Shown in pieces: positions 13,230 to 34,306 of a stretch of DNA of 64,000 bases. This stretch comes from Candidatus Poseidoniaceae archaeon. Lineage in GTDB: Archaea; Thermoplasmatota; Poseidoniia; Poseidoniales; Poseidoniaceae. The notes under the pieces were generated by a model that worked only from the letters and a program-made list of their open reading frames with translations, searched no databases and had not been told where the DNA came from. The DNA is taken from assembly GCA_938030705.1 (NCBI GenBank), contig CALHIR010000025.1, positions 17,259 to 81,258 of the forward strand, read 5' to 3'. Within the stretch, counting starts at the first letter, position 1. Every line of letters begins with the position of its first letter. Position numbers and translations under genes: made by a program.

Positions 13230-14303
13230 ATGTCAGACAAGAGCAAGCGAGACCTCGGCCAGTTTTTCACACGAGATTCTGTTTGGCTGCGCTCTCACAT
13301 ACGAACCCACATCGAAACCCTTCGTGAACGGTATACCGTGTGCGTTGACCCGTTTGCAGGCGACGGCCATCTTCTTGAAGTGGCCGAAGAATTGGGGTTT
13401 CATGTTCGTGGCCATGATATTGACGAGAGCATATGTGCCTCCAAGGAATGGGGAGATCCAAACGATTCTATTCGCCGAGTTATCGTTCATGATGGAGCCT
13501 TTGTCCTGACCAATCCACCTTACCTCGCCAAAAATTCGGCTAAGCGAATGAAGTCCTCCATGGTTGAGTATTTTTCTCCGGGGTTCATACCCACGCTTGA
13601 CGATTCACGGTTGAATGTTTTAGATGACTTATTCAAACTGGCCATTGAGCAAACCATAACAAAATACGATGATTCAATTTGGATCGTCCCTGAATCTGGC
13701 ATTCAGGATTTGGATGACTTGCCGCATTGGAAAGACCGACTTCATTCGGTTACGATTCTCGAGGATAATCCGTTCGATGATACAGAACACCCCGTCTGCG
13801 TCATGATTTTCTCAACATCAAACCCCCTAAAAGAGGTGTGGAAAAACGACACGCTCCTCGGCACATACGATGAGATTCGGCGCGTTCACAATCAAACTGC
13901 AAAAGGGCCATCCAATTTGACCCACATGAAATTCAACGCACCCGATGGAACGCTCGGCTACCGAGCTGTCGACGGAACCCGAGAAGACGGAAGCATGCGC
14001 ATCAAATTCTGTCGGGGCGAGGAATTGGGTTATGACCGTAGCAATATCAAAGTGAGCAGCCGGCATTTAACCTACATTGAAATTGAACTTGAAGGCGACC
14101 TGCTCGACAGAATCATTGCGGATGCGAATCAACGCATCAATGCTTATCGGGAAGCCACGCATGATGTCTTTTTGACGGCCTTCATGGGAAACACAAAAAC
14201 AGGCGAACGGCGCAGACGTCTTGACTACAAACTCGCTCGAAAAATCTTCAACGAAGCGTTTAGAAGCCAAATCAATAAAGGTGGACTGAGGGATTACGGT
14301 TGA
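13230..14303 (+). CDS. DNA adenine (amino) methyltransferase, putative Type II modification subunit
   Basis: LGQFFTRDSVW (motif X), VDPFAGDGHLLEVAEELG (motif I), FVLTNPPYLAKNS (motif IV NPPY). Confidence 0.85.
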   Translation: MSDKSKRDLGQFFTRDSVWLRSHIRTHIETLRERYTVCVDPFAGDGHLLEVAEELGFHVRGHDIDESICASKEWGDPNDSIRRVIVHDGAFVLTNPPYLAKNSAKRMKSSMVEYFSPGFIPTLDDSRLNVLDDLFKLAIEQTITKYDDSIWIVPESGIQDLDDLPHWKDRLHSVTILEDNPFDDTEHPVCVMIFSTSNPLKEVWKNDTLLGTYDEIRRVHNQTAKGPSNLTHMKFNAPDGTLGYRAVDGTREDGSMRIKFCRGEELGYDRSNIKVSSRHLTYIEIELEGDLLDRIIADANQRINAYREATHDVFLTAFMGNTKTGERRRRLDYKLARKIFNEAFRSQINKGGLRDYG

Positions 14304-14845
14304 CTGCGAAATTCAAACACATTATTCCGGGCAAAAAAATGACCAAAGAATGGCGAACAAAAATCATCGGCGGTGGAAAGCCAATGGGGGGAGCAATCTC
14401 ATCAAGAGCAGAAGAATGGCAAAGAATGTGCTTGGAAAGAATTACAGGCGAAGAATGCACCAAAACAAATCTACGACTAAATCTTGAAACGCATAAACTC
14501 AAGAAAGTCACTCGACCGAGCAACGAACCTGATGAATTTGAATGGACGGAGGATTTTGATGGCGAATTTTTTGTCGGAAAAACGAGATACCTCGTCAATT
14601 TCAAAATGATCGTTGGGACAGGTGGCGTGCAAACTCGTTCAATGAGAGAGGTTTACCATTTCATCAAGTGCCAAGAATCTTATCTGAAATCATCAGGCGA
14701 TAAGCACACGAAATTTCTAAACATCCTTGATGGAGACAGTGTCGGTGCAAAAATGGCCCCTATGAGAAAGGCGTGTTCGAAAACAGGCTCGAAGAAAATT
14801 TTCATCGGTGATACCCATGAAATTAAGAAAATTTGGAAATTTTAA
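14300..14845 (+). CDS. Candidate Type II restriction endonuclease partner of upstream methyltransferase
   Basis: TTG start overlaps the MTase stop (ttga); FEWTEDFDGEFFVGKTRYLVNFKMIVGTGGVQTRSMREVYHFIKCQ is PD-(D/E)xK-like (D...[N]FK); A-rich composition shared with MTase gene. Confidence 0.5.
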   Translation: MTAKFKHIIPGKKMTKEWRTKIIGGGKPMGGAISSRAEEWQRMCLERITGEECTKTNLRLNLETHKLKKVTRPSNEPDEFEWTEDFDGEFFVGKTRYLVNFKMIVGTGGVQTRSMREVYHFIKCQESYLKSSGDKHTKFLNILDGDSVGAKMAPMRKACSKTGSKKIFIGDTHEIKKIWKF

Positions 14846-14920
14846 ACACGCGAGACCCTTGCGTGAGAGGGGAATTGCGCAGGAATAGAGTTAATATGGA
14901 CAGAACGGCACACTGACTTG

Positions 14921-17900
14921 ATGTCCACTCTGCGTAGAACGACTCCCGGCCTGCTTGTGACCCTGCTTTTGCTTACGGCACTGTCTCCAATTGCCACGGT
15001 CCAAGCCGTTCCCGATGAGGCATCAGAGTACTATTACGGGGTCGAATACGACTGGTCAAGCCTTGACAGCGACCTGCAAAACGTAACCGGCTTGGACATC
15101 CAAACATTGTTCACCGAAATCATGGCGGACGCCGATGATGCAGGGTTCAACCTCGACCTTGGTCAGTTGACCACAGGCGCATCCAATGTTTACGTCCACC
15201 AAACCGAGGACATCACGCCTCAAACCATCCAGGACTTGGACGGCAACGACGTTCAAGTATGGAGCCGCACCAGCGACGTGGTACTTCGCCACGGCCTGTT
15301 GTCCAACGCCGTCATCATGACCGACTGGTCGGAGACGACCTTCGGCAGCGAGCCCACCGGCTTTGACATCGACGTCATCGCCGAAGCAGAGAACGTCCTG
15401 ACCGTTGACATGCTCTACACCGAATACCTCAACGACCAGTACCAACTCGTCGGCGCAGACATGGACATTGACATGACCGTTGGCAACGACATGAACCTCG
15501 GCATCGACATCACCCTCGAGGGTGACGGCGAGGAGCTCAATGTTGACTTCGACACCGGCATGGACTTCAGCTACTCCATTGCTTCTCAAGCCGAGTGGCG
15601 ACTTGGCAACCCCAGCCCCATCTACGTCACCGCTGCCTCCAACGACCGAACCGTTTGGGAATGCGTTGAGGAAGGCGACACCGTGGGTGTTGACGATGGT
15701 TGGGACGATGCCGAGGTCTACGACATGTGCGGCATGATCGACGGCTCCTACATCGGCTCGGCCGACTACAACGTCTACCTGACGGGCCTACCCATGGAAG
15801 AGTTTGGCTTCGATGCAGGTCAGTTTGACATCAGCATTAGCGACGAACTCACCAGCGAAGGCGACTACGAAGGCGAGGCCAACATGGACGATGTCTCGTT
15901 CAGCATGCGCACCGACGAACCACTCGAGGTCAACCTTGGAGACGGTAACACGCTCGATGTCACGGCCTGTGATACATGCCCGCCTGGCAACCCTGTCATG
16001 TTCATCATGATGGGCAATGTCTTGCTTCACGCCAGCGAATCCTTTGGCGAAGCGGTGACTGAAGACTTTGAGGCCGAACTCGAAGACTCGGTGGGTGAAC
16101 TCATCGAAGACTGGTTTGGCATTGACGACGATGGCGACATGGAGGAGTACGACGATAGCGATAACTGGTTCATGTGCGACAGCGGTGAGATGATTGAATC
16201 TTGGAACGTCAATGACGGTGATGAAGATTGCAAGGACGGTTCGGACGAAGACGACCTCTACCTGCGTGGCGGTACCACCCAAGATTGGAATACCGGCGAG
16301 GAACACTACGCCTTCAACGGCCGTGTAGATGCTACCAGCCTCGGTCTTGAATCCGATGCAACCATTGAATGTTATAGCGAATGGGATGGCTACATGGAGT
16401 TGCCAGTTGGCGATGTCAACGACGGCTATGACGACTGCGATGACGGCTCGGATGAGTACGACAACGGTCTCACCAGCACCTATGTCTGCTTGGATGGTTC
16501 CGAGATTTCCTTTGAACTCGTTAACGACGGCACGGCGGACTGCGCTGACGCTTCCGATGAACCCGTGGACAACGAAGGCGACTGGTACAACTGCGCCGAT
16601 TACAACGGCGCCGTGCCCTGGCAGTGGGTCAACGACGGTACTGCGCAGTGCGATGACGGCAGCGACGAATACAATGCCGCCGAGAGTGATGACTTCTATT
16701 GCGAAGACTGGTCGACCGTTTCCTTTGATCTCGTGAACGACGGCACCGAAGACTGTGCTGACGGCTCGGACGAAGGCGAGGGCATCTACTTCCTGATGGA
16801 CGTCTACATGAATGACGGCGAGGGCGGTGTGATCGCTTCCGGCGATGACCTTCTGCTCTGCGCTGCCTATCACTGCGACGTGTCCTTTAGCGTTGATTCG
16901 GGCTACATTCAGGTCGGTACCGAGGTACCAGCCGATATGGAATACGGTGAGAACACGATGTGTGCCGGTGGAAGCATCGCTGCTCCCGACGGCACATCGC
17001 TGGTCTCCGCTGTTGAAAATTGCGACTCGACATGGACTGGACCCGAAATCCGAGACTGGGAGAGCAACATGAACAACGAGGGTGACAACACCCTCCGTGT
17101 CACGGCGGGTGCAGGCACCTGGAGCGGTGAATACGACGACATCACGATGCATTGGGCCGTTTCCGATGCCGATGGCGCGGTTGTTGACCAGGGCAGCGTT
17201 GCTTTCAGCGATGAGTCCGAGGTCTACGCCGAGAACATGGTTGACATTGCTGGTGAGGGCGAATACTGTCTCTCCGTTGAATTGGTAGAGAACGGCGAGA
17301 CCGAGCCCTTTGACGCCTACGAAGACTGCATGACCGTTGAAGACGGCCCCGAAGTCAGCGAGCGCATGGAAAAGATTGTCGGCGCATTGGCCGATTCTGG
17401 CCTCAGCAACGTGCTGGAGAACTTCGGCAGCAACCTTGAGATGACCTTCCAAGAACTTGACGAGAACTACGAAGTGCCCGTCTTCCCCTACGCCGACGGC
17501 ATGTGGGCGCCTCTTTGGAGCAACGAGCACGCCACCATCGTTGGTGTTGGCGTGTACGCTTGGGATGAGGACGGCAACGGCTACGTCATCGCTGGACCGG
17601 AAACGACCGGCTACAGCCAGGACCTGCCCATGACCTTCGCCAGCATCCGCTACATCACCGGTGTTCCCGCACAGGAAGCCCAGGAGGCGATGGCTGAATT
17701 TGATGACCTCGAAGACATCGTTGATGTGGAAAATCACGACCTTACCGAACTGGCCAATGACCTCGAAGCCGCTGGTGCCGACACGTCCGACCTTGGTCTG
17801 GGAGACGAAACCACCGATGACGGTGAGGACACGCCTCCAACCGCTGAGGAAGTTGCCGAAGACGCAGGTCTTCTGCCCTTTGTATCTCCACTCACAGTCA

Positions 17901-17956
17901 TCGCACTCATCGGCCTTGCCGCTGTTGCAGGTAACCGACGAAGCGAGAACGAGTGA
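14921..17956 (+). CDS. Large secreted/surface-anchored acidic protein with LDLa-like repeats
   Basis: Signal peptide (LLVTLLLLTALSPIATVQAVPDE), five to six C...VNDGxxDCxDGSDE repeats, C-terminal TM + RR anchor (VIALIGLAAVAGNRRSENE). Confidence 0.85.
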   Translation: MSTLRRTTPGLLVTLLLLTALSPIATVQAVPDEASEYYYGVEYDWSSLDSDLQNVTGLDIQTLFTEIMADADDAGFNLDLGQLTTGASNVYVHQTEDITPQTIQDLDGNDVQVWSRTSDVVLRHGLLSNAVIMTDWSETTFGSEPTGFDIDVIAEAENVLTVDMLYTEYLNDQYQLVGADMDIDMTVGNDMNLGIDITLEGDGEELNVDFDTGMDFSYSIASQAEWRLGNPSPIYVTAASNDRTVWECVEEGDTVGVDDGWDDAEVYDMCGMIDGSYIGSADYNVYLTGLPMEEFGFDAGQFDISISDELTSEGDYEGEANMDDVSFSMRTDEPLEVNLGDGNTLDVTACDTCPPGNPVMFIMMGNVLLHASESFGEAVTEDFEAELEDSVGELIEDWFGIDDDGDMEEYDDSDNWFMCDSGEMIESWNVNDGDEDCKDGSDEDDLYLRGGTTQDWNTGEEHYAFNGRVDATSLGLESDATIECYSEWDGYMELPVGDVNDGYDDCDDGSDEYDNGLTSTYVCLDGSEISFELVNDGTADCADASDEPVDNEGDWYNCADYNGAVPWQWVNDGTAQCDDGSDEYNAAESDDFYCEDWSTVSFDLVNDGTEDCADGSDEGEGIYFLMDVYMNDGEGGVIASGDDLLLCAAYHCDVSFSVDSGYIQVGTEVPADMEYGENTMCAGGSIAAPDGTSLVSAVENCDSTWTGPEIRDWESNMNNEGDNTLRVTAGAGTWSGEYDDITMHWAVSDADGAVVDQGSVAFSDESEVYAENMVDIAGEGEYCLSVELVENGETEPFDAYEDCMTVEDGPEVSERMEKIVGALADSGLSNVLENFGSNLEMTFQELDENYEVPVFPYADGMWAPLWSNEHATIVGVGVYAWDEDGNGYVIAGPETTGYSQDLPMTFASIRYITGVPAQEAQEAMAEFDDLEDIVDVENHDLTELANDLEAAGADTSDLGLGDETTDDGEDTPPTAEEVAEDAGLLPFVSPLTVIALIGLAAVAGNRRSENE

Positions 17957-19008: not shown

Positions 19009-20418
19009 ATGGGTGCCACCATGGCTAAACCGAAAACTTCTGCAGAAAAAGCACGGGAGGATGAAGAACAATCCCAACTTGATAACATGCTGGGCGGCGC
19101 ATTTGGGGGCATTGAATCGCTCGAGGCGCCGACAGGGGATGTCGACACACCAACCGAAACCATCGAAGAACCGGATTCAGAATTACCAGCCGACGCGACC
19201 GAGGGCCCGACCGGCCCCCCCACAGGCCCACCTACGGGTCCACCTTCAGGCCCTCCATCCGGCCCCCCGACAGGTCCACCTTCAGGCCCTCCATCCGGTC
19301 CTCCGACAGGACCGCCCTCGGGTCCTCCATCCGGCCCCCCATCAGGTCCCCCTGTGCCTTCACCCGACGATACCGGTCAGGAAGCATCACCGGTTGAAGT
19401 TGAACAAAAACCCGAAACAACCGAGCCGGAACAAGCCGAACCTGAAGCACTTGAGCCCGAAACAACCGAGCCGGAAACACCTGAGAACGTGATTGCCGAA
19501 GAAGGCGCGGGCCAAACCTCTGAGCCCGAGGCGATTGAAACCGAACCTCCTGCGAATGATGAAGCAGAAACGCTCGACGAAGCCCCCGAGAAGGCTTCCG
19601 TAGCAGAAGAACACCCCCCCTCGACCAAACCGGCGGAGACCCCCTCTTCCCCCGGTGCCCTCGACCAAACGGCCCTCGACCTTCTTGCTGAAAAGGAAGC
19701 GGAACTTGAACGTCTTCACATGGAAAACGCTCGCCTTCGCCAATCCGTGGTCGGGGCAACGGAAGTCATTGAAGAATTGGAAGAGCCGCCCATGCCACCG
19801 CTGGTGGAAGACAACATTGTCATCCCTGCTTACATCGTTTCAGACTTTGTCCGCCTTGGCCGCCAACTCGATCGGGAACATTTGGTCAGGGCCACCATGG
19901 GCTCTTTGGCGATGATTCATCCAGAGCAACCCGGCGTAATGATTTCTACACGCCACATGGTCACGCTCCCCCGAATGAACGAGCGCAGCCTTTGTGCAGC
20001 CCCCCTCGGGTCCACTTCCCCACGAGGCGCCCCTTCCGATTGGCACGCCCTTGAAGTCGTGCTCGCCTCGGTCTCCATGGTCACCGGGGGTCCTGCTGCG
20101 GTGATTCACATGCACGGGCCGCATACCACCGCCGCCAGTTGCGAGAAAGACCTCGTTTTGCTCACGCCTATCGATGAACTTGGAAAACAACACATCGGCA
20201 AGATCATCATTGTTGATCCGGACCCTGAACACCCGGAAGACTACCTCCGCCAAGTGGCCGAAGCGCTCAATCAAGGTGGAATGCGGTGTGTCGTAGTTCG
20301 CGGCAACGGCGCTTATGCTGTCGGTGCGGACTTTGACCAAGCCTGGGCTAACGCAGCTATGGTGGAACACAGCATGCAGATCCACCTCCTTGCGCGACAA
20401 GCGAACCTGAAAACTTGA
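19009..20418 (+). CDS. Pro-rich (GPPS/T)n protein with C-terminal class II aldolase/adducin-like domain
   Basis: N-terminal acidic/Pro-rich region; C-terminal ...GGPAAVIHMHGPHTTAASCEKD...RCVVVRGNGAYAVGADFDQAWANAAMVEHSMQIHLLARQ resembles class II aldolase core. Start may be 19021. Confidence 0.65.
   Translation: MGATMAKPKTSAEKAREDEEQSQLDNMLGGAFGGIESLEAPTGDVDTPTETIEEPDSELPADATEGPTGPPTGPPTGPPSGPPSGPPTGPPSGPPSGPPTGPPSGPPSGPPSGPPVPSPDDTGQEASPVEVEQKPETTEPEQAEPEALEPETTEPETPENVIAEEGAGQTSEPEAIETEPPANDEAETLDEAPEKASVAEEHPPSTKPAETPSSPGALDQTALDLLAEKEAELERLHMENARLRQSVVGATEVIEELEEPPMPPLVEDNIVIPAYIVSDFVRLGRQLDREHLVRATMGSLAMIHPEQPGVMISTRHMVTLPRMNERSLCAAPLGSTSPRGAPSDWHALEVVLASVSMVTGGPAAVIHMHGPHTTAASCEKDLVLLTPIDELGKQHIGKIIIVDPDPEHPEDYLRQVAEALNQGGMRCVVVRGNGAYAVGADFDQAWANAAMVEHSMQIHLLARQANLKT
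19204..19353 (+). repeat. In-frame tandem repeat encoding (G-P-P-T/S)n, 12-nt period
   Basis: Direct reading: GPTGPPTGPPTGPPSGPPSGPPTGPPSGPPSGPPTGPPSGPPSGPPSGPP. Confidence 0.95.
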
Positions 20419-20566: not shown

Positions 20567-21421
20567 ATGGACCAAAATACGAAATTTGACGTTGAAATTG
20601 CAGACGCATCTGGACATTCTACCGTTCAGATGACACAGACCGAAATTGCCGAGAAGGCCTCCCAAACCCAGGGCTCCTGGGTGTTCGTGAACAACCAACT
20701 TGTCAGCGCCGCTGACATCGCTGACATGAATTTGGAAGCAGGCAGCCGCATTCGTTTGATGCCTGGCCTCGTTGGTGGCCAAGACGCCCCTACCTTCGAT
20801 GTGGAAATCGCCGACGCAACCGGGCACTCCACCGTGCAAATGACCCAAGACGAACTCGTCGAGAAAGCCGGCCAGACCCAAGGCTCTTGGGTGTTCATCA
20901 ACAACCAACTCGTCAGCACTGCAGAACTTGCCAACATGAACTTGGACGCAGGGAGCCGCATTCGCTTGATGCCCGGCCTTGTTGGTGGCCAGCACCCCCT
21001 TACCTTCGTCGTTCAAATCACCGACCAATCTGGCCATTCCGAAGTTGTCATGACCAAGGCTCAGATTGTTGACAAGGCTACCCAAAACAACGAGTTGTGG
21101 GTCTTCGTGAACAACCAACTCGTCAACACCAATGACCTTGCTGAGATGAACATGGAAGCAGGCAGCAGCGTTCGTATGGCACCCGGTATCATCGGTGGCC
21201 AGGACGCCCCTACCTTCGACGTGGAAATTGCTGACGCAACCGGCCACTCTACCGTGCAGATGACCCAAGACGAACTGGTGGAAAAAGCCGACCAAACCCA
21301 GGGATCCTGGGTTTTCGTGGATAACCAACTCGTCAGCACCGCTGAAATCGCCAACATGAACTTGGAAGCAGGCAGCCGCATTCGCTTGATGCCCGGCTTG
21401 ATCGGTGGACGTGCCTGCTGA
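20567..21421 (+). CDS. Four-repeat beta-grasp/ubiquitin-like (ThiS/MoaD-like tail) protein
   Basis: 284 aa = 6 aa + 3 x 70 aa + 68 aa; each unit FDVEIADATGHSTVQMTQDELVEKA...WVFVNNQLVSTAEIANMNLEAGSRIRLMPGLVGG; SD-like AGGTGA upstream. Confidence 0.85.
   Translation: MDQNTKFDVEIADASGHSTVQMTQTEIAEKASQTQGSWVFVNNQLVSAADIADMNLEAGSRIRLMPGLVGGQDAPTFDVEIADATGHSTVQMTQDELVEKAGQTQGSWVFINNQLVSTAELANMNLDAGSRIRLMPGLVGGQHPLTFVVQITDQSGHSEVVMTKAQIVDKATQNNELWVFVNNQLVNTNDLAEMNMEAGSSVRMAPGIIGGQDAPTFDVEIADATGHSTVQMTQDELVEKADQTQGSWVFVDNQLVSTAEIANMNLEAGSRIRLMPGLIGGRAC
20585..21421 (+). repeat. Four tandem 210-bp coding repeats
   Basis: 70-aa unit repeated in frame; units 2 and 4 near identical, unit 3 most divergent. 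Confidence 0.95.
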
Positions 21422-29275: not shown

Positions 29276-32200
29276 ATGAACCAGAAAATCAAATCCGTTA
29301 GCCTAGCGTCCATCATGGTCCTTTCCGTGATGTCCTCGCTCCTTATCGCCTCCGTGTCGGTCAGTGCCAGCACGGTGGTCATCACCGAAGCCATCCAGAT
29401 TGTAGATGGCGGGACATCGTCCGATTCACAGACCGCCGTCGGTTCTGACAGTTCCGGCAACGTGCACGTTGTTTGGACCCGAAACAACCTCCACCTCTAT
29501 TATTCCATGATTTCGCCCCGTGGCGAGACGCTAATTGATGCGACCCAAATCACCAACGCCGGACTTCACAAGATTTGGCATCCTGATCTCGCCGTCGACG
29601 AATTTGACCGAATTCACGTCGTTTGGGCGGACAAAGCCGGTCAACATGCCATCATGTACACCGCCCTTTCCCCTTGGTCTGCTCCCATGGACGGCATGGC
29701 CTCCGACGACGGCACCATCACCGCCATCGACGATTCCATCATCTCGCGCCGCTCCCAAAACCGAGACTGGCCTGCCCTTGACATCGATAGCCAAAACAAC
29801 GTCCACATTGTTTGGCAAGACAACTACGACGAACTTGGCCGTTTCTTCAATCAGCCCCAAATCTACTACTCCATGATTCAGCCCGACATTGGCTCTGGTG
29901 CCATCATCACCCTCTTTGATGACACCCTCTTGACGCCCATCATCGGCCACAAAGGTCACCCCGATGTGGTCGTTGACGCCAACGATTACGTCCAAATCGC
30001 TTGGGACGACACCCGTGGCGGAAAGGTGGAACTGGCCTTTATCGTCGATACCTCGGGCTCCATGTATTCCGAGTGGGCTGACATCTGCACCGTTATTTAC
30101 GGCGGCAACTTTGCCTCCGGACCTTATTTCCAAGGCATCAAACCCATGCTTGAAGAAGGCAACATGACCGTTTACGAGACCATCTATGGTTTGGGCAACA
30201 CCCTCCCCGGTGCAGCAAGCTCAGGAAACTGTCAGGGCTACAACCAGAATACCGGCCCTCGAACCACGCCGCTCGGCCAAACCCCCGGCGACGACTCCGG
30301 CGGTATCCGCAAACTTCCCGGAACCATCTACAACGGCAACACGTACTCCGGTTATTCCGGTGAAGACTGGGGCCCAGGTTCTAACTGGGCCTGTTTGTCG
30401 TGGAAGGACTCTGCTGGAAACGTTCCCGGCAACCCTCCTACGCAATCGGACCACCGCTGGAACCCCAACGCCACCAAGATCGTGATTCCTGTTTCAGATG
30501 AAGGTCCAAAGGACGGCGACCCGTCTCAGCAAGCCGATGACAAAGCAGCCATCCAAGAAGCACACGACAACTGTTTGTTGGCTGGCGTGATTCCAGTCGG
30601 TCTCTACGGTCAAGGCTACGGCGGTGCAGGCAACATCCAGTCTCACTTCATGGATCTGGTGCAGTGCCCCAACGGCATCGTTTCGACCCAAACTCGAAAC
30701 TGCCCCGGCAACACCCTTGCCAACACCGACGCCGGCGGGCAAGCCTACGAATTCCCTTCAGGCTCGGGTACCAACCAAATGGCCCTTCTCGTCGAAGCCA
30801 TGGTCTACATTTCAACCAACAATTCGCGTGAAATCTACATGTCGGTCCTCGACCCCTATGCCAAGATGAACAATGACCCCAGTTTCACTCCTGGATTGCC
30901 CGGCCACTCTGCACAGGGCGGCAACTACGCAGAAGACACCGGTGCTGGTGCTGACGGCCACTTGGTGGTCGTCAACGACACCCGCGTCACCATCGACGAC
31001 GCTTACTCATTCCACCCCTCCATCGGCGTTGACCAGCAAGGCAACACCCACATTGCGTGGATGGACGGCCGCGACTATGGTTTCGAGAAGGACGTGAACT
31101 ACGAGGTGTACTACACCAAACTTCGCCTCCAAGGTGCCGGCGCTTGGGACGGGGCAGATGAAGGCCTCTCCACCTACGCCATCAAGAAGATCAACGACAC
31201 CCCCATCTCCAACGTGGAAGGCAAGAACGGCCTGCCCCCTGCCTCGCCTTATGCAGGCAACTCCGTCTTCCCGTCCTTGTTGACCGACGACCAGAACAAC
31301 ATCCACATTGCGTGGGTTGATTCCGGCAACCTTTCGGCGAACGAAGAGATTCTCTACACCCGATTGAACCAAACCGACCTGACCGGCGATGGCCTCACGG
31401 CCCTTGACCCCTGGGAAGCCGTGGCAGTGACCTCTTGGAATTCCAACAAACTCGGGCCAAACAGCGGCCGTCAACCGGCCATCGGTATGCCGCCGGCCTT
31501 CTCGAACGACTTGGGAAGCGGCGCACACATTGCGTGGTCCGACACCAACAAGTGCGGTGATGACGGTAACAACAATCGGTTCACCATCTGTTATTCCCAC
31601 GTTCTGACCGGCCAAGTGGACGTTGATTTTGACGAAGGCGAGACCTTCTATCACGTCATTGAACCCGGACAACAGACCATCTACAACATGACGATGAACA
31701 ACTCAACACCCGGTCCCAAGGACCTGGTCGCTGACACCTACGGCTTGAACATCTCTGGCGTACCGATGAACTGGACAGCGAACCTCTACTTCGCCTCCAA
31801 CCACTCGAGCATCTTCCCAGACACACCGATTTTCCTCGAAGGCGGTGAAGACATTCGGTTCTATATGCGAGTGCAGGCCCCGTCCATCTACCAAGCAAAC
31901 GGGGACGAATTAGCTGAAATCCGTATTACGGCACAGTCCTACAAGGACCCAGCCATTCAGAACGACATCATCACGCTGACCTTGATGGACGTGGTTCACG
32001 GCATCAACCTCGACACCTCGCACAGCATGGCGGATATTGAGCAGGGCGACACCGCCATCTTCTCCATTACCATCACCAACACGGGTAACGTGCACGACGC
32101 CTTTGTCTTCTGGGATCCTAACAGTCTCGAAGGGCAGCAAGAATGGCTCCTCCCGTTCGGCTGGCAAGTGAACTTCCCGATTCGGGTGGAATTGGACCCT

Positions 32201-34306
32201 GGCCAATCGGTCACCAAGAACCTCGAAGTCTTCGTTCCGACCACGGAAGACCCCGGGGCCTTCGTCATTTACGTGAAGGGCTGGTCAGAGGGCGAACCCA
32301 TCAAGTCAGTGGAAAAAGGCACCTATGACATCCTTGAATTGGGTGTGTTCGTGTCCATCCGTTCCACCGGCAACATCGTGTTTGCTGTGGACGACCGCTC
32401 TGAACAAATCAAGCCAGGTGAGTGCGCAGACTACAACATCAACGTGACCAAGAATTTCGATTCCGGTGAACTCGTGTTCGCAACCCCAGGTGCTCCAGAA
32501 GCCAAGCCAGACGGCATCGCTATGGATGCATGGCGAGAAGAAAACTGGGTCGTCATCGTTGACTTCGCCAACGCCACAGGTTCAGCTGACGCTGGCGACG
32601 GGCTCGGCGATCCTATTGCCTGGACCATTCCAGGTACAGCCGATAAGATCACCAAGCGTGTCACCGTCCATGTTTGTGCTCCTGAAAACGCCACGGCCGG
32701 TCTCGGCCCTGCCATCACACTGAAGGGCTACCTGGACGGCTATCCACGTATTTCGGATTCGGCCATCTTGTCCACCAACGTTGAGCACGTGTTTGCTCTC
32801 GATGCGGGCGTTGATCCCGATGTTGGCACCTCGATGAACGTGAACCCCGGCGAAAAGATTTCGCTGCCGATCACGGTCACCAACGACGGAAACGGTCCTG
32901 ACCGCTTTGACTTCCGTCTCGCACGGGTCACCGATGCATTCGGCGTCGATGTCATCTGGGACATCGAAATTCCTCGAGAGACGTTGCAGGAACTCTCCCC
33001 TGACACCTATCAAGCCTTTGAGGTCATGATGAACGTGCCAAACAGAGTCCCAGCAGGCGAATACACCGTTGTGTTGCAAGCCTTCTCAGAGGAAGTCTAT
33101 CCCGATGCCAGCGGCCGAGAAACGCGGATTCGAGACACCATCGTTTTGGCGGTGTCCGTTGACGAGTTCCACGACATGCAAATCTCGATGGATTCAACCG
33201 TTGACAATGCCGTGAAGACTTCTGCCCCAGGAAAGATCGTTCGGTTCACGTTCAACGTGACCAACAACGGCAACGTTCCGGATGTTCCAACTCTAAACAA
33301 CCACACCGCTCAGCGAGACGGCGATTCTCTCCTCTGGAATGAGTTGCCCGGCATGAGCGTGCTCAGCTCCTGGGATGTGGACTGGTTCATCATGCGGCAG
33401 GTCAGCGCTGACCTCATCGTGGAGGAATCCTGCATGTACATGCAATCCACGGCCTCCTCTTTCCCAGAGGATGCTTGCGTTTACCTCGAAGATATCGACG
33501 AATGGCGTCTTCCCGAGATGGCCCCGTACGAAACCATCACCACCGTTGCTGCAGTGAAGATTGGCACGGACGCCAAGCTTGACACACGAAACATTGGCCT
33601 GAAGGTCGTATCAATGTACGGCGATATGGAAAACGACGGCGACCATGACGATTCTCCAGAATGGGATGGCGACAACTATGATTCAAACGAATTCATTGTC
33701 ACCCTCCGATTGCGAGCACCAAACCTTGAGATCAAGGAAATCATCATGCCCCCTTCCACCTCAAGCGAAGTGGACACGACGATTCCAATCGGCATCATCT
33801 TGCAGAACACAGGTAACGTCCATGCGACCGACATCGAAATCGTGCTTTGTGAATACGATGACGTGAACGATGCCGACATCATGAAGGAAATCCGTGAAAA
33901 CGGATGCGAGGAAGAGCGTGTGGTCATGCGTCAAGTGGTCGGTGCCCTGTTGGCTCCAGACGACACCGAGGATGCGAAGGAAATCGAACTCTACCTGCTC
34001 TACCCGGTTACCGCCGGAAGCAAGGGGGTTTACGTGGTGGTTGACCCGATGAACGAAATCGTTGAGTCCGATGAGAAAGACAACGTCAGGCCCATTCCAG
34101 AAGCTCTTGAGTCCAACAGCCCCATGATCGACTTGGCAAAAGAGGTCGTTGGAAAGACCGCCTTGCCGTTCGCCGTCATCGTGCTGACCATTGCCCTCCT
34201 GGGTGTGGTCTACTTGGTCGGTAAGGGCCGACGCGATGAAGTGAACAAGCGACTTGCTGAACAATCCTCGTTGGTCACTGTGCTGGCAGACGAAGAAAAC
34301 CTCTGA
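29276..34306 (+). CDS. Giant surface protein: beta-propeller-like repeats with inserted VWA domain, CARDB/NPCBM-like repeats, C-terminal TM anchor
   Basis: Signal peptide; repeated D..xNxHxxWxD motifs; LAFIVDTSGSMYSEW (MIDAS); repeated NxGNVxD blocks; C-terminal LPFAVIVLTIALLGVVYLVGKGRRDE. Confidence 0.85.
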   Translation: MNQKIKSVSLASIMVLSVMSSLLIASVSVSASTVVITEAIQIVDGGTSSDSQTAVGSDSSGNVHVVWTRNNLHLYYSMISPRGETLIDATQITNAGLHKIWHPDLAVDEFDRIHVVWADKAGQHAIMYTALSPWSAPMDGMASDDGTITAIDDSIISRRSQNRDWPALDIDSQNNVHIVWQDNYDELGRFFNQPQIYYSMIQPDIGSGAIITLFDDTLLTPIIGHKGHPDVVVDANDYVQIAWDDTRGGKVELAFIVDTSGSMYSEWADICTVIYGGNFASGPYFQGIKPMLEEGNMTVYETIYGLGNTLPGAASSGNCQGYNQNTGPRTTPLGQTPGDDSGGIRKLPGTIYNGNTYSGYSGEDWGPGSNWACLSWKDSAGNVPGNPPTQSDHRWNPNATKIVIPVSDEGPKDGDPSQQADDKAAIQEAHDNCLLAGVIPVGLYGQGYGGAGNIQSHFMDLVQCPNGIVSTQTRNCPGNTLANTDAGGQAYEFPSGSGTNQMALLVEAMVYISTNNSREIYMSVLDPYAKMNNDPSFTPGLPGHSAQGGNYAEDTGAGADGHLVVVNDTRVTIDDAYSFHPSIGVDQQGNTHIAWMDGRDYGFEKDVNYEVYYTKLRLQGAGAWDGADEGLSTYAIKKINDTPISNVEGKNGLPPASPYAGNSVFPSLLTDDQNNIHIAWVDSGNLSANEEILYTRLNQTDLTGDGLTALDPWEAVAVTSWNSNKLGPNSGRQPAIGMPPAFSNDLGSGAHIAWSDTNKCGDDGNNNRFTICYSHVLTGQVDVDFDEGETFYHVIEPGQQTIYNMTMNNSTPGPKDLVADTYGLNISGVPMNWTANLYFASNHSSIFPDTPIFLEGGEDIRFYMRVQAPSIYQANGDELAEIRITAQSYKDPAIQNDIITLTLMDVVHGINLDTSHSMADIEQGDTAIFSITITNTGNVHDAFVFWDPNSLEGQQEWLLPFGWQVNFPIRVELDPGQSVTKNLEVFVPTTEDPGAFVIYVKGWSEGEPIKSVEKGTYDILELGVFVSIRSTGNIVFAVDDRSEQIKPGECADYNINVTKNFDSGELVFATPGAPEAKPDGIAMDAWREENWVVIVDFANATGSADAGDGLGDPIAWTIPGTADKITKRVTVHVCAPENATAGLGPAITLKGYLDGYPRISDSAILSTNVEHVFALDAGVDPDVGTSMNVNPGEKISLPITVTNDGNGPDRFDFRLARVTDAFGVDVIWDIEIPRETLQELSPDTYQAFEVMMNVPNRVPAGEYTVVLQAFSEEVYPDASGRETRIRDTIVLAVSVDEFHDMQISMDSTVDNAVKTSAPGKIVRFTFNVTNNGNVPDVPTLNNHTAQRDGDSLLWNELPGMSVLSSWDVDWFIMRQVSADLIVEESCMYMQSTASSFPEDACVYLEDIDEWRLPEMAPYETITTVAAVKIGTDAKLDTRNIGLKVVSMYGDMENDGDHDDSPEWDGDNYDSNEFIVTLRLRAPNLEIKEIIMPPSTSSEVDTTIPIGIILQNTGNVHATDIEIVLCEYDDVNDADIMKEIRENGCEEERVVMRQVVGALLAPDDTEDAKEIELYLLYPVTAGSKGVYVVVDPMNEIVESDEKDNVRPIPEALESNSPMIDLAKEVVGKTALPFAVIVLTIALLGVVYLVGKGRRDEVNKRLAEQSSLVTVLADEENL

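What the first reader, a model, noticed from the sequence alone, without database searches (positions are those of the whole stretch)
16165..16785. LDL-receptor class A-like calcium-cage repeats in an archaeal surface protein
At least five repeats of the form [MY]xCx(8-16)-[DV]VNDGxxDCxDGSDE occur (VNDGDEDCKDGSDE, VNDGYDDCDDGSDE, VNDGTADCADASDE, VNDGTAQCDDGSDE, VNDGTEDCADGSDE). They match the acidic C-terminal half of LDLa modules (CDGxxDCxDGSDE) but keep about two Cys instead of six. The LDLa calcium cage is best known from animals, so a minimal two-Cys archaeal form may be an independent or ancestral version used in adhesion or ligand binding.
Basis: partly seen in the sequence, partly recalled or inferred. 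Interest (0 to 1): 0.65.

Follow-up and report, generated by a model that had tools for sequence, protein, structure and literature searches.

The report
Stripped-down LDL-receptor modules in marine archaea
A surface protein of an abundant ocean archaeon carries five small calcium-binding modules of the kind found in the animal LDL receptor, trimmed from three disulfide bonds to the single bond that ties the module to its calcium site; this is a previously undescribed (as far as I could search) prokaryotic variant, probably used for sticking to or catching things in seawater.

Summary
The CDS at 14918-17956 (+) encodes a secreted, C-terminally anchored protein whose residues 418-619 are five LDLa-type modules. 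Pfam PF00057 matches far above its cut-off (E=4e-14), the nearest solved structures are VLDLR, LDLR and glucosidase-II beta, and the AlphaFold model of three modules (pLDDT 88) retrieves only LDLa-containing chains among its 50 best Foldseek hits. The alignment is gapless: only cysteines 1, 3, 4 and 6 are missing. The two retained are C2 and C5, a bonded pair in canonical LDLa, and the acidic calcium ligands are kept. Among 178 distinct modules from relatives, found with a cysteine-blind profile, none has C3 or C4 and all have C5. The form is widespread in the order (56 genomes in the phylum sample, arrays up to ~30 modules) and was not found in the phylum outside the class. Bacteria, mainly Myxococcota, have canonical six-Cys modules and a four-Cys form lacking C1-C3. 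So this is best read as a derived, pairwise-trimmed LDLa homologue, not a convergent form. Adhesion or capture of basic ligands is inferred, not shown. It fails the six-cysteine criterion, so it is a new variant.

The parts
14918..17956 (+). CDS of the LDLa-bearing surface protein, 1012 aa (probable start ATG 14921)
   Evidence: orthologues in 38 of 59 relatives, 97 to about 30% identity
14921..15007 (+). predicted signal peptide (MSTLRRTTPGLLVTLLLLTALSPIATVQA)
   Evidence: Read from sequence; helix 9-22 in the model
15023..15970 (+). N-terminal domain of long antiparallel strands (aa 36-351), family unknown
   Evidence: Model, moderate confidence; no Pfam match
16169..16249 (+). LDLa-like module 1 (aa 418-444), C420/C438; cage D433, D437, D443, E444
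   Evidence: C420, G434, C438, D440, S442, D443, E444 invariant in 27 orthologues
16364..16456 (+). LDLa-like module 2 (aa 483-513), C485/C507, longer spacing (22)
16481..16561 (+). LDLa-like module 3 (aa 522-548), C524/C542
16586..16669 (+). LDLa-like module 4 (aa 557-584), C559/C578; Q replaces the second cage aspartate
16694..16774 (+). LDLa-like module 5 (aa 593-619), C595/C613; lies in the best Pfam stretch (589-619)
16787..17338 (+). Ig-like beta-sandwich region (aa 624-807)
   Evidence: Model pLDDT mostly 70-90; Foldseek hits to beta-sandwich-containing proteins such as GH2 enzymes and transglutaminases (which part of the query they cover is not printed)
17360..17692 (+). C-terminal mixed domain (aa 815-925), strongly conserved
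17870..17953 (+). C-terminal anchor LLPFVSPLTVIALIGLAAVAGNRRSENE (hydrophobic helix plus RR)
   Evidence: Sequence; helix 991-1006; a related LDLa array protein of the order ends in a PGF-CTERM motif

Best explanation
The five repeats are minimal LDLa modules homologous to, and most likely derived from, six-cysteine LDLa. Each keeps the beta hairpin, one disulfide (C2-C5) that ties the hairpin to the calcium loop, and the cage ligands; disulfides C1-C3 and C4-C6 are gone, with C4 usually Asn. They sit as an array on an outward-facing, C-terminally anchored protein of a Poseidoniales-like marine archaeon. Calcium in seawater would keep the modules folded and loaded, and the array presents acidic, partly aromatic faces that bind basic ligands, for adhesion to particles or cells or for capture of protein. 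Shown here: homology, register, cysteine pattern, predicted fold, distribution. Inferred: calcium binding, disulfide formation, direction of evolution, ligand binding.
For: PF00057 E=4e-14; PDB phmmer hits VLDLR 2.5e-9, LDLR 4.1e-9, glucosidase-II beta 8.4e-8; orthologue profile against LRP2 1.8e-72. AlphaFold of modules 3-5 pLDDT 88, hairpin plus short helix plus loop each; all 50 best Foldseek hits are LDLa-containing chains. Gapless register: C2(0), G+3, I/V+6, W/Y/F+10, N+12 in place of C4, D+13, G+14, D+17 93%, C5+18, S+22, D+23, E+24. Cysteine-blind detection: 178 modules, 0 with C3 or C4, 178 with C5, 143 with C2 aligned, 156 with all four cage acids. C1-C3, C2-C5, C4-C6 is the known LDLa bonding (PMC4861306). 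Calcium is required for native disulfides in LDLR modules (PMC4500599). Repeat number varies between orthologues and arrays reach about 30 modules in a lipoprotein with TSP3 repeats and a PGF-CTERM anchor. Mean net charge -8.9 per module. Genomic studies of the order infer particle attachment (PMC6461757, PMC6336850).
Against: No calcium, disulfide or ligand measurement exists. An aromatic at +10, the position I equate with the tryptophan that contacts viruses in LDLR-family complexes (PMC8550936), is present in only about half of modules. Module 4 lacks one cage acid. Some orthologues have one or no clear module by the motif, so the array is not essential to the host protein. The full-length model is poor over modules 3-5, though the dedicated model is good. 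The profile distance to bacterial four-Cys against six-Cys modules does not resolve the route (809 of 1000 bootstraps).
Confidence: 0.6

Rival explanations
1. Same LDLa-derived modules, but purely structural: calcium-stiffened spacers or a stalk that holds the N-terminal and Ig-like domains apart, with no ligand of their own.
For: Repeat number varies freely; aromatic at +10 is not conserved; long arrays occur next to TSP3 calcium repeats in the lipoprotein.
Against: Module 1 is invariant at C2, C5, S and most cage residues in orthologues down to about 30% identity, which fits either role; some proteins have a single module inside a small domain, poor as a spacer (L353).
Confidence: 0.3
2. The two-cysteine form is ancestral, and four- and six-cysteine LDLa were built from it by adding disulfides.
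For: The C2-C5 bond and cage are common to all forms; a 2-4-6 series can be read upwards as well as downwards.
Against: Within the phylum sample no genome outside the class has it; bacterial and animal forms share the six-Cys pattern; no two-Cys module among 64 gapless modules from the bacterial genome searches.
Confidence: 0.15
3. Convergence: an acidic Cys-containing calcium repeat that only resembles LDLa.
For: Acidic D/G/E-rich repeats are common in surface proteins of this order, e.g. TSP3.
Against: Cysteine-masked profile still gives 1.7e-22 against 0.15 for shuffles; hairpin positions, spacing and predicted fold all match.
Confidence: 0.04

Closest known systems
LDL-receptor class A module (PF00057), e.g. 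LDLR, VLDLR, LRP2/megalin
   Same: F-x-C hairpin, G+3, I+6, P+7, W+10, DGxxDCxDGSDE calcium loop, C2-C5 spacing of 18, tandem arrays on a cell-surface protein
   Different: Two Cys instead of six; C3 and C4 replaced (C4 mostly by Asn), C1 and C6 absent; archaeal anchor; no EGF or YWTD propeller domains found
Bacterial four-Cys LDLa-like modules of Myxococcota (seen in this work)
   Same: Lack C1-C3, have the DGxxIPxxW hairpin without C3
   Different: Keep the C4-C6 pair
PRKCSH / glucosidase-II beta LDLa pair (PF12999)
   Same: Second Pfam hit, sub-threshold in the window protein (24.7 against 34.9 bits)
   Different: Six-Cys modules in an ER enzyme subunit
TSP3 calcium repeats (PF18884)
   Same: Acidic calcium repeats in related surface lipoproteins of the order
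   Different: Different motif; not in the window protein

Membership tests
LDLa module (PF00057) | Scores above the curated Pfam cut-off | tested here: met
   53 bits against 24.1, E=4e-14, 4 stretches; single modules 21-24 bits
LDLa module (PF00057) | Six cysteines forming three disulfides C1-C3, C2-C5, C4-C6 | tested here: not met
   Only C2 and C5; 0 of 178 modules have C3 or C4. They are, however, a bonded pair in the canonical scheme (PMC4861306)
LDLa module (PF00057) | Acidic calcium-cage residues D+13, D+17, D+23, E+24 | tested here: met
   156 of 178 modules have all four; in the window four of five (module 4 has Q at +17)
LDLa module (PF00057) | LDLa fold (hairpin plus calcium loop) | tested here: met
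   Predicted only: pLDDT 88, Foldseek to LDLa arrays, best E=1.6e-4
LDLa module (PF00057) | Calcium-dependent folding and binding | not testable with these tools
   Needs protein; residues conserved
LDL receptor family (whole receptor) | LDLa cluster followed by EGF and YWTD propeller, cytoplasmic sorting motif | tested here: not met
   No other Pfam domain over cut-off; C-terminal tail is RRSENE

The most novel reading that the evidence does not exclude
A one-disulfide LDLa module is the standard calcium-dependent adhesion or capture unit of Poseidoniales-like archaea, expanded to arrays of up to about 30, and LDLa evolution runs by gain or loss of whole disulfide pairs around a fixed C2-C5 bond and calcium cage.
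Probability: 0.35. Interest if true: 0.7.

Novelty: new variant of a known kind. Interest (0 to 1): 0.55.

Why it matters
LDLa is a textbook animal module whose three disulfides are taken as essential. A natural one-disulfide form, abundant in a major group of surface-ocean archaea and accompanied by a four-Cys bacterial form, defines what the module minimally needs (one bond plus calcium). It offers a small stable scaffold and points to a concrete, testable surface-attachment system in organisms that have not been cultured. It also shows that 'thrombospondin' adhesion genes reported for this order (PMC6461757) can carry large LDLa arrays.

Tried and rejected
Archaeosortase search (PF09721) in the own genome: no match, but Haloferax in the control set did not ring either, so uninformative. 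Full-length AlphaFold model: moderate overall, poor over modules 3-5; replaced by a dedicated three-module model. Nearest bacterial source by profile distance: unresolved. Phage or viral source: no tblastn match in 50,697 phage records and no viral contig with the archaeal IPxxWVNDG signature; viral contigs with NDGxxDC carry a different protein. Papers: five searches found none describing archaeal LDLa; four MGII papers searched by term do not mention LDL, though some discuss adhesion by flagella, thrombospondin or flotillin. The library holds open-licence papers only. Gene neighbours gave no functional clue.

Full report
WHAT IS THERE. The window lies in a 2.0 Mb draft genome (G000, contig C25). 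The CDS 14918-17956 (+) starts at TTG with ATG as the second codon. It encodes a signal peptide, a beta-rich N-terminal domain, five LDLa-like modules at aa 418-619, an Ig-like beta region, a conserved C-terminal domain and a hydrophobic helix followed by RR. Related proteins occur in 38 of 59 relatives at E<=1e-20.

IS IT LDLa? Pfam-A gives PF00057 at 4e-14. phmmer of 16151-16900 against PDB sequences gives VLDLR 2.5e-9, LDLR 4.1e-9 and glucosidase-II beta 8.4e-8, with gapless single-module alignments. A profile built only from bacterial six-Cys modules scores 58 bits (2.8e-17); the best of 1000 composition-preserving local shuffles reaches 0.11, and masking every cysteine in the profile improves the separation (1.7e-22 against 0.15). 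So the non-cysteine framework carries the signal. AlphaFold2 on modules 3-5 with 38 aligned segments gives pLDDT 88 and a repeated hairpin, short helix and loop. The 50 best Foldseek matches are all chains or complexes with LDLa modules (megalin, VLDLR, LDLR, ApoER2, CD320, glucosidase-II beta, complement factor I). TM-scores are near 0.3 of the query, which I read as one rigid module superposing at a time.

WHICH CYSTEINES. In canonical LDLa counted from C2=0, C3 is +5, C4 +12 and C5 +18. The archaeal modules keep 0 and +18. With a cysteine-masked profile, 178 distinct modules from relatives were recovered: none has C3 or C4, all have C5, and C2 is present in all but two of those in which that column is aligned (the other alignments start after it). 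C4 is Asn in 90%. All four cage acids are present in 156. The LDLa bonding C1-C3, C2-C5, C4-C6 (PMC4861306) means the two survivors are one bonded pair; under random loss of four of six this has probability 3/15, so the fact fits but does not prove disulfide logic. In the orthologue alignment, C420, G434, C438, D440, S442, D443 and E444 of module 1 are invariant across 27 sequences down to about 30% identity; D433 is D in 23 and N in 4.

DISTRIBUTION. In a phylum sample of 293 genomes, 57 have PF00057 at E<=1e-4: 56 in the order and one in the same class, none outside the class. The same search in other phyla gave 15 of 96 (around Nannocystis, Myxococcota), 1 of 198 (around a Bacteroidales MAG, the seed itself), 3 of 120 (around a Neomarinimicrobiota MAG) and 1 of 299 (around an Acidiferrobacteraceae MAG, the seed itself). 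Other archaeal phyla were tested only through control genomes (none at E<=1e-3). A DNA scan for CDGxxDCxDxSDE returned over 118 bacterial contigs and no listed archaeon. That pattern demands C4, so it says nothing about two-Cys forms. These bacterial modules are about half canonical six-Cys and half a four-Cys form lacking C3 and, by inference, C1, since an upstream Cys there is usually the previous module's C6. Hence a 6-4-2 series by whole disulfide pairs around a constant C2-C5.

ARRAYS. The own genome has further LDLa proteins: a contig-end-truncated lipoprotein with TSP3-like repeats and at least 13 modules, and a one-module membrane protein. A complete 1597-aa relative (G140) has a lipobox, TSP3 repeats, about 30 modules (my count by eye; 14 by a strict pattern) and a PGF-CTERM motif (PF00057 E=2.5e-69). 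Orthologues of the window protein have from none to six modules by the strict motif.

MECHANISM. Shown: homology, register, cysteine pattern, fold prediction, surface signals, distribution. Inferred: C2-C5 disulfide and calcium binding. LDLR modules need calcium to reach native disulfides (PMC4500599), and seawater calcium of about 10 mM (own knowledge) should suffice. The cage ligand positions are taken from knowledge of LDLR LA5. Function: the modules are strongly acidic (mean net charge -8.9 over 27 residues) and about half have an aromatic at +10, the position I equate with the tryptophan that VSV, HRV and VEEV contact in LDLR-family modules (PMC8550936). I therefore favour calcium-dependent binding of basic ligands in adhesion or capture over a mere spacer, without proof.

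NOVELTY. Any Pfam scan would label these proteins LDLa, so the resemblance is not hidden. I found no paper on archaeal LDLa, and none naming a two-Cys form. Because a defining feature (six Cys) is not met, I file it as a new variant, not a plain member.

Noticed in passing
L172:6966-7895, L194:9137-9853 and about 70 more IMG/VR loci (L163-L241): AT-rich marine viral contigs carry a secreted Cys-rich LDLa-like protein (C1, C2, C3, C5, often C6, but Asn for C4: NDGWEDCVDGSDE), followed by DTIVETEYI repeats and a C-terminal end like a Bacteroidota sorting domain (GQAIREPxGLYIENGKIKYxIK). Looks like a phage-encoded secreted protein of Bacteroidota phages.
   Followed up: partly
L050-L062, L086-L091 and others: Myxococcota-type four-Cys LDLa-like modules lacking the C1-C3 disulfide, often in compact tandem arrays.
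   Followed up: partly
L355:2132-6922 (G140:C5): 1597-aa lipoprotein with TSP3 repeats, about 30 two-Cys LDLa modules and a PGF-CTERM motif; both an N-terminal lipobox and a C-terminal anchor signal in one protein.
   Followed up: partly
window 13230-14845: DNA methylase-like gene (weak N6_N4_Mtase match) overlapping an unknown 181-aa gene directly upstream of the LDLa gene; could be a restriction-modification pair.
   Followed up: no
window 20567-21421: 284-aa protein made of four similar repeats of about 70 aa (FDVEIADATGHSTVQMTQ...GSRIRLMPGLVGGQ); only weak, unrelated Pfam matches.
   Followed up: no
window 19009-20418: Class II aldolase/adducin domain preceded by a long GPPTGPPSGPP low-complexity linker.
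   Followed up: no
window 29276-34306: 1676-aa protein with CARDB and NEW3-type domains, probably another large surface protein.
   Followed up: no
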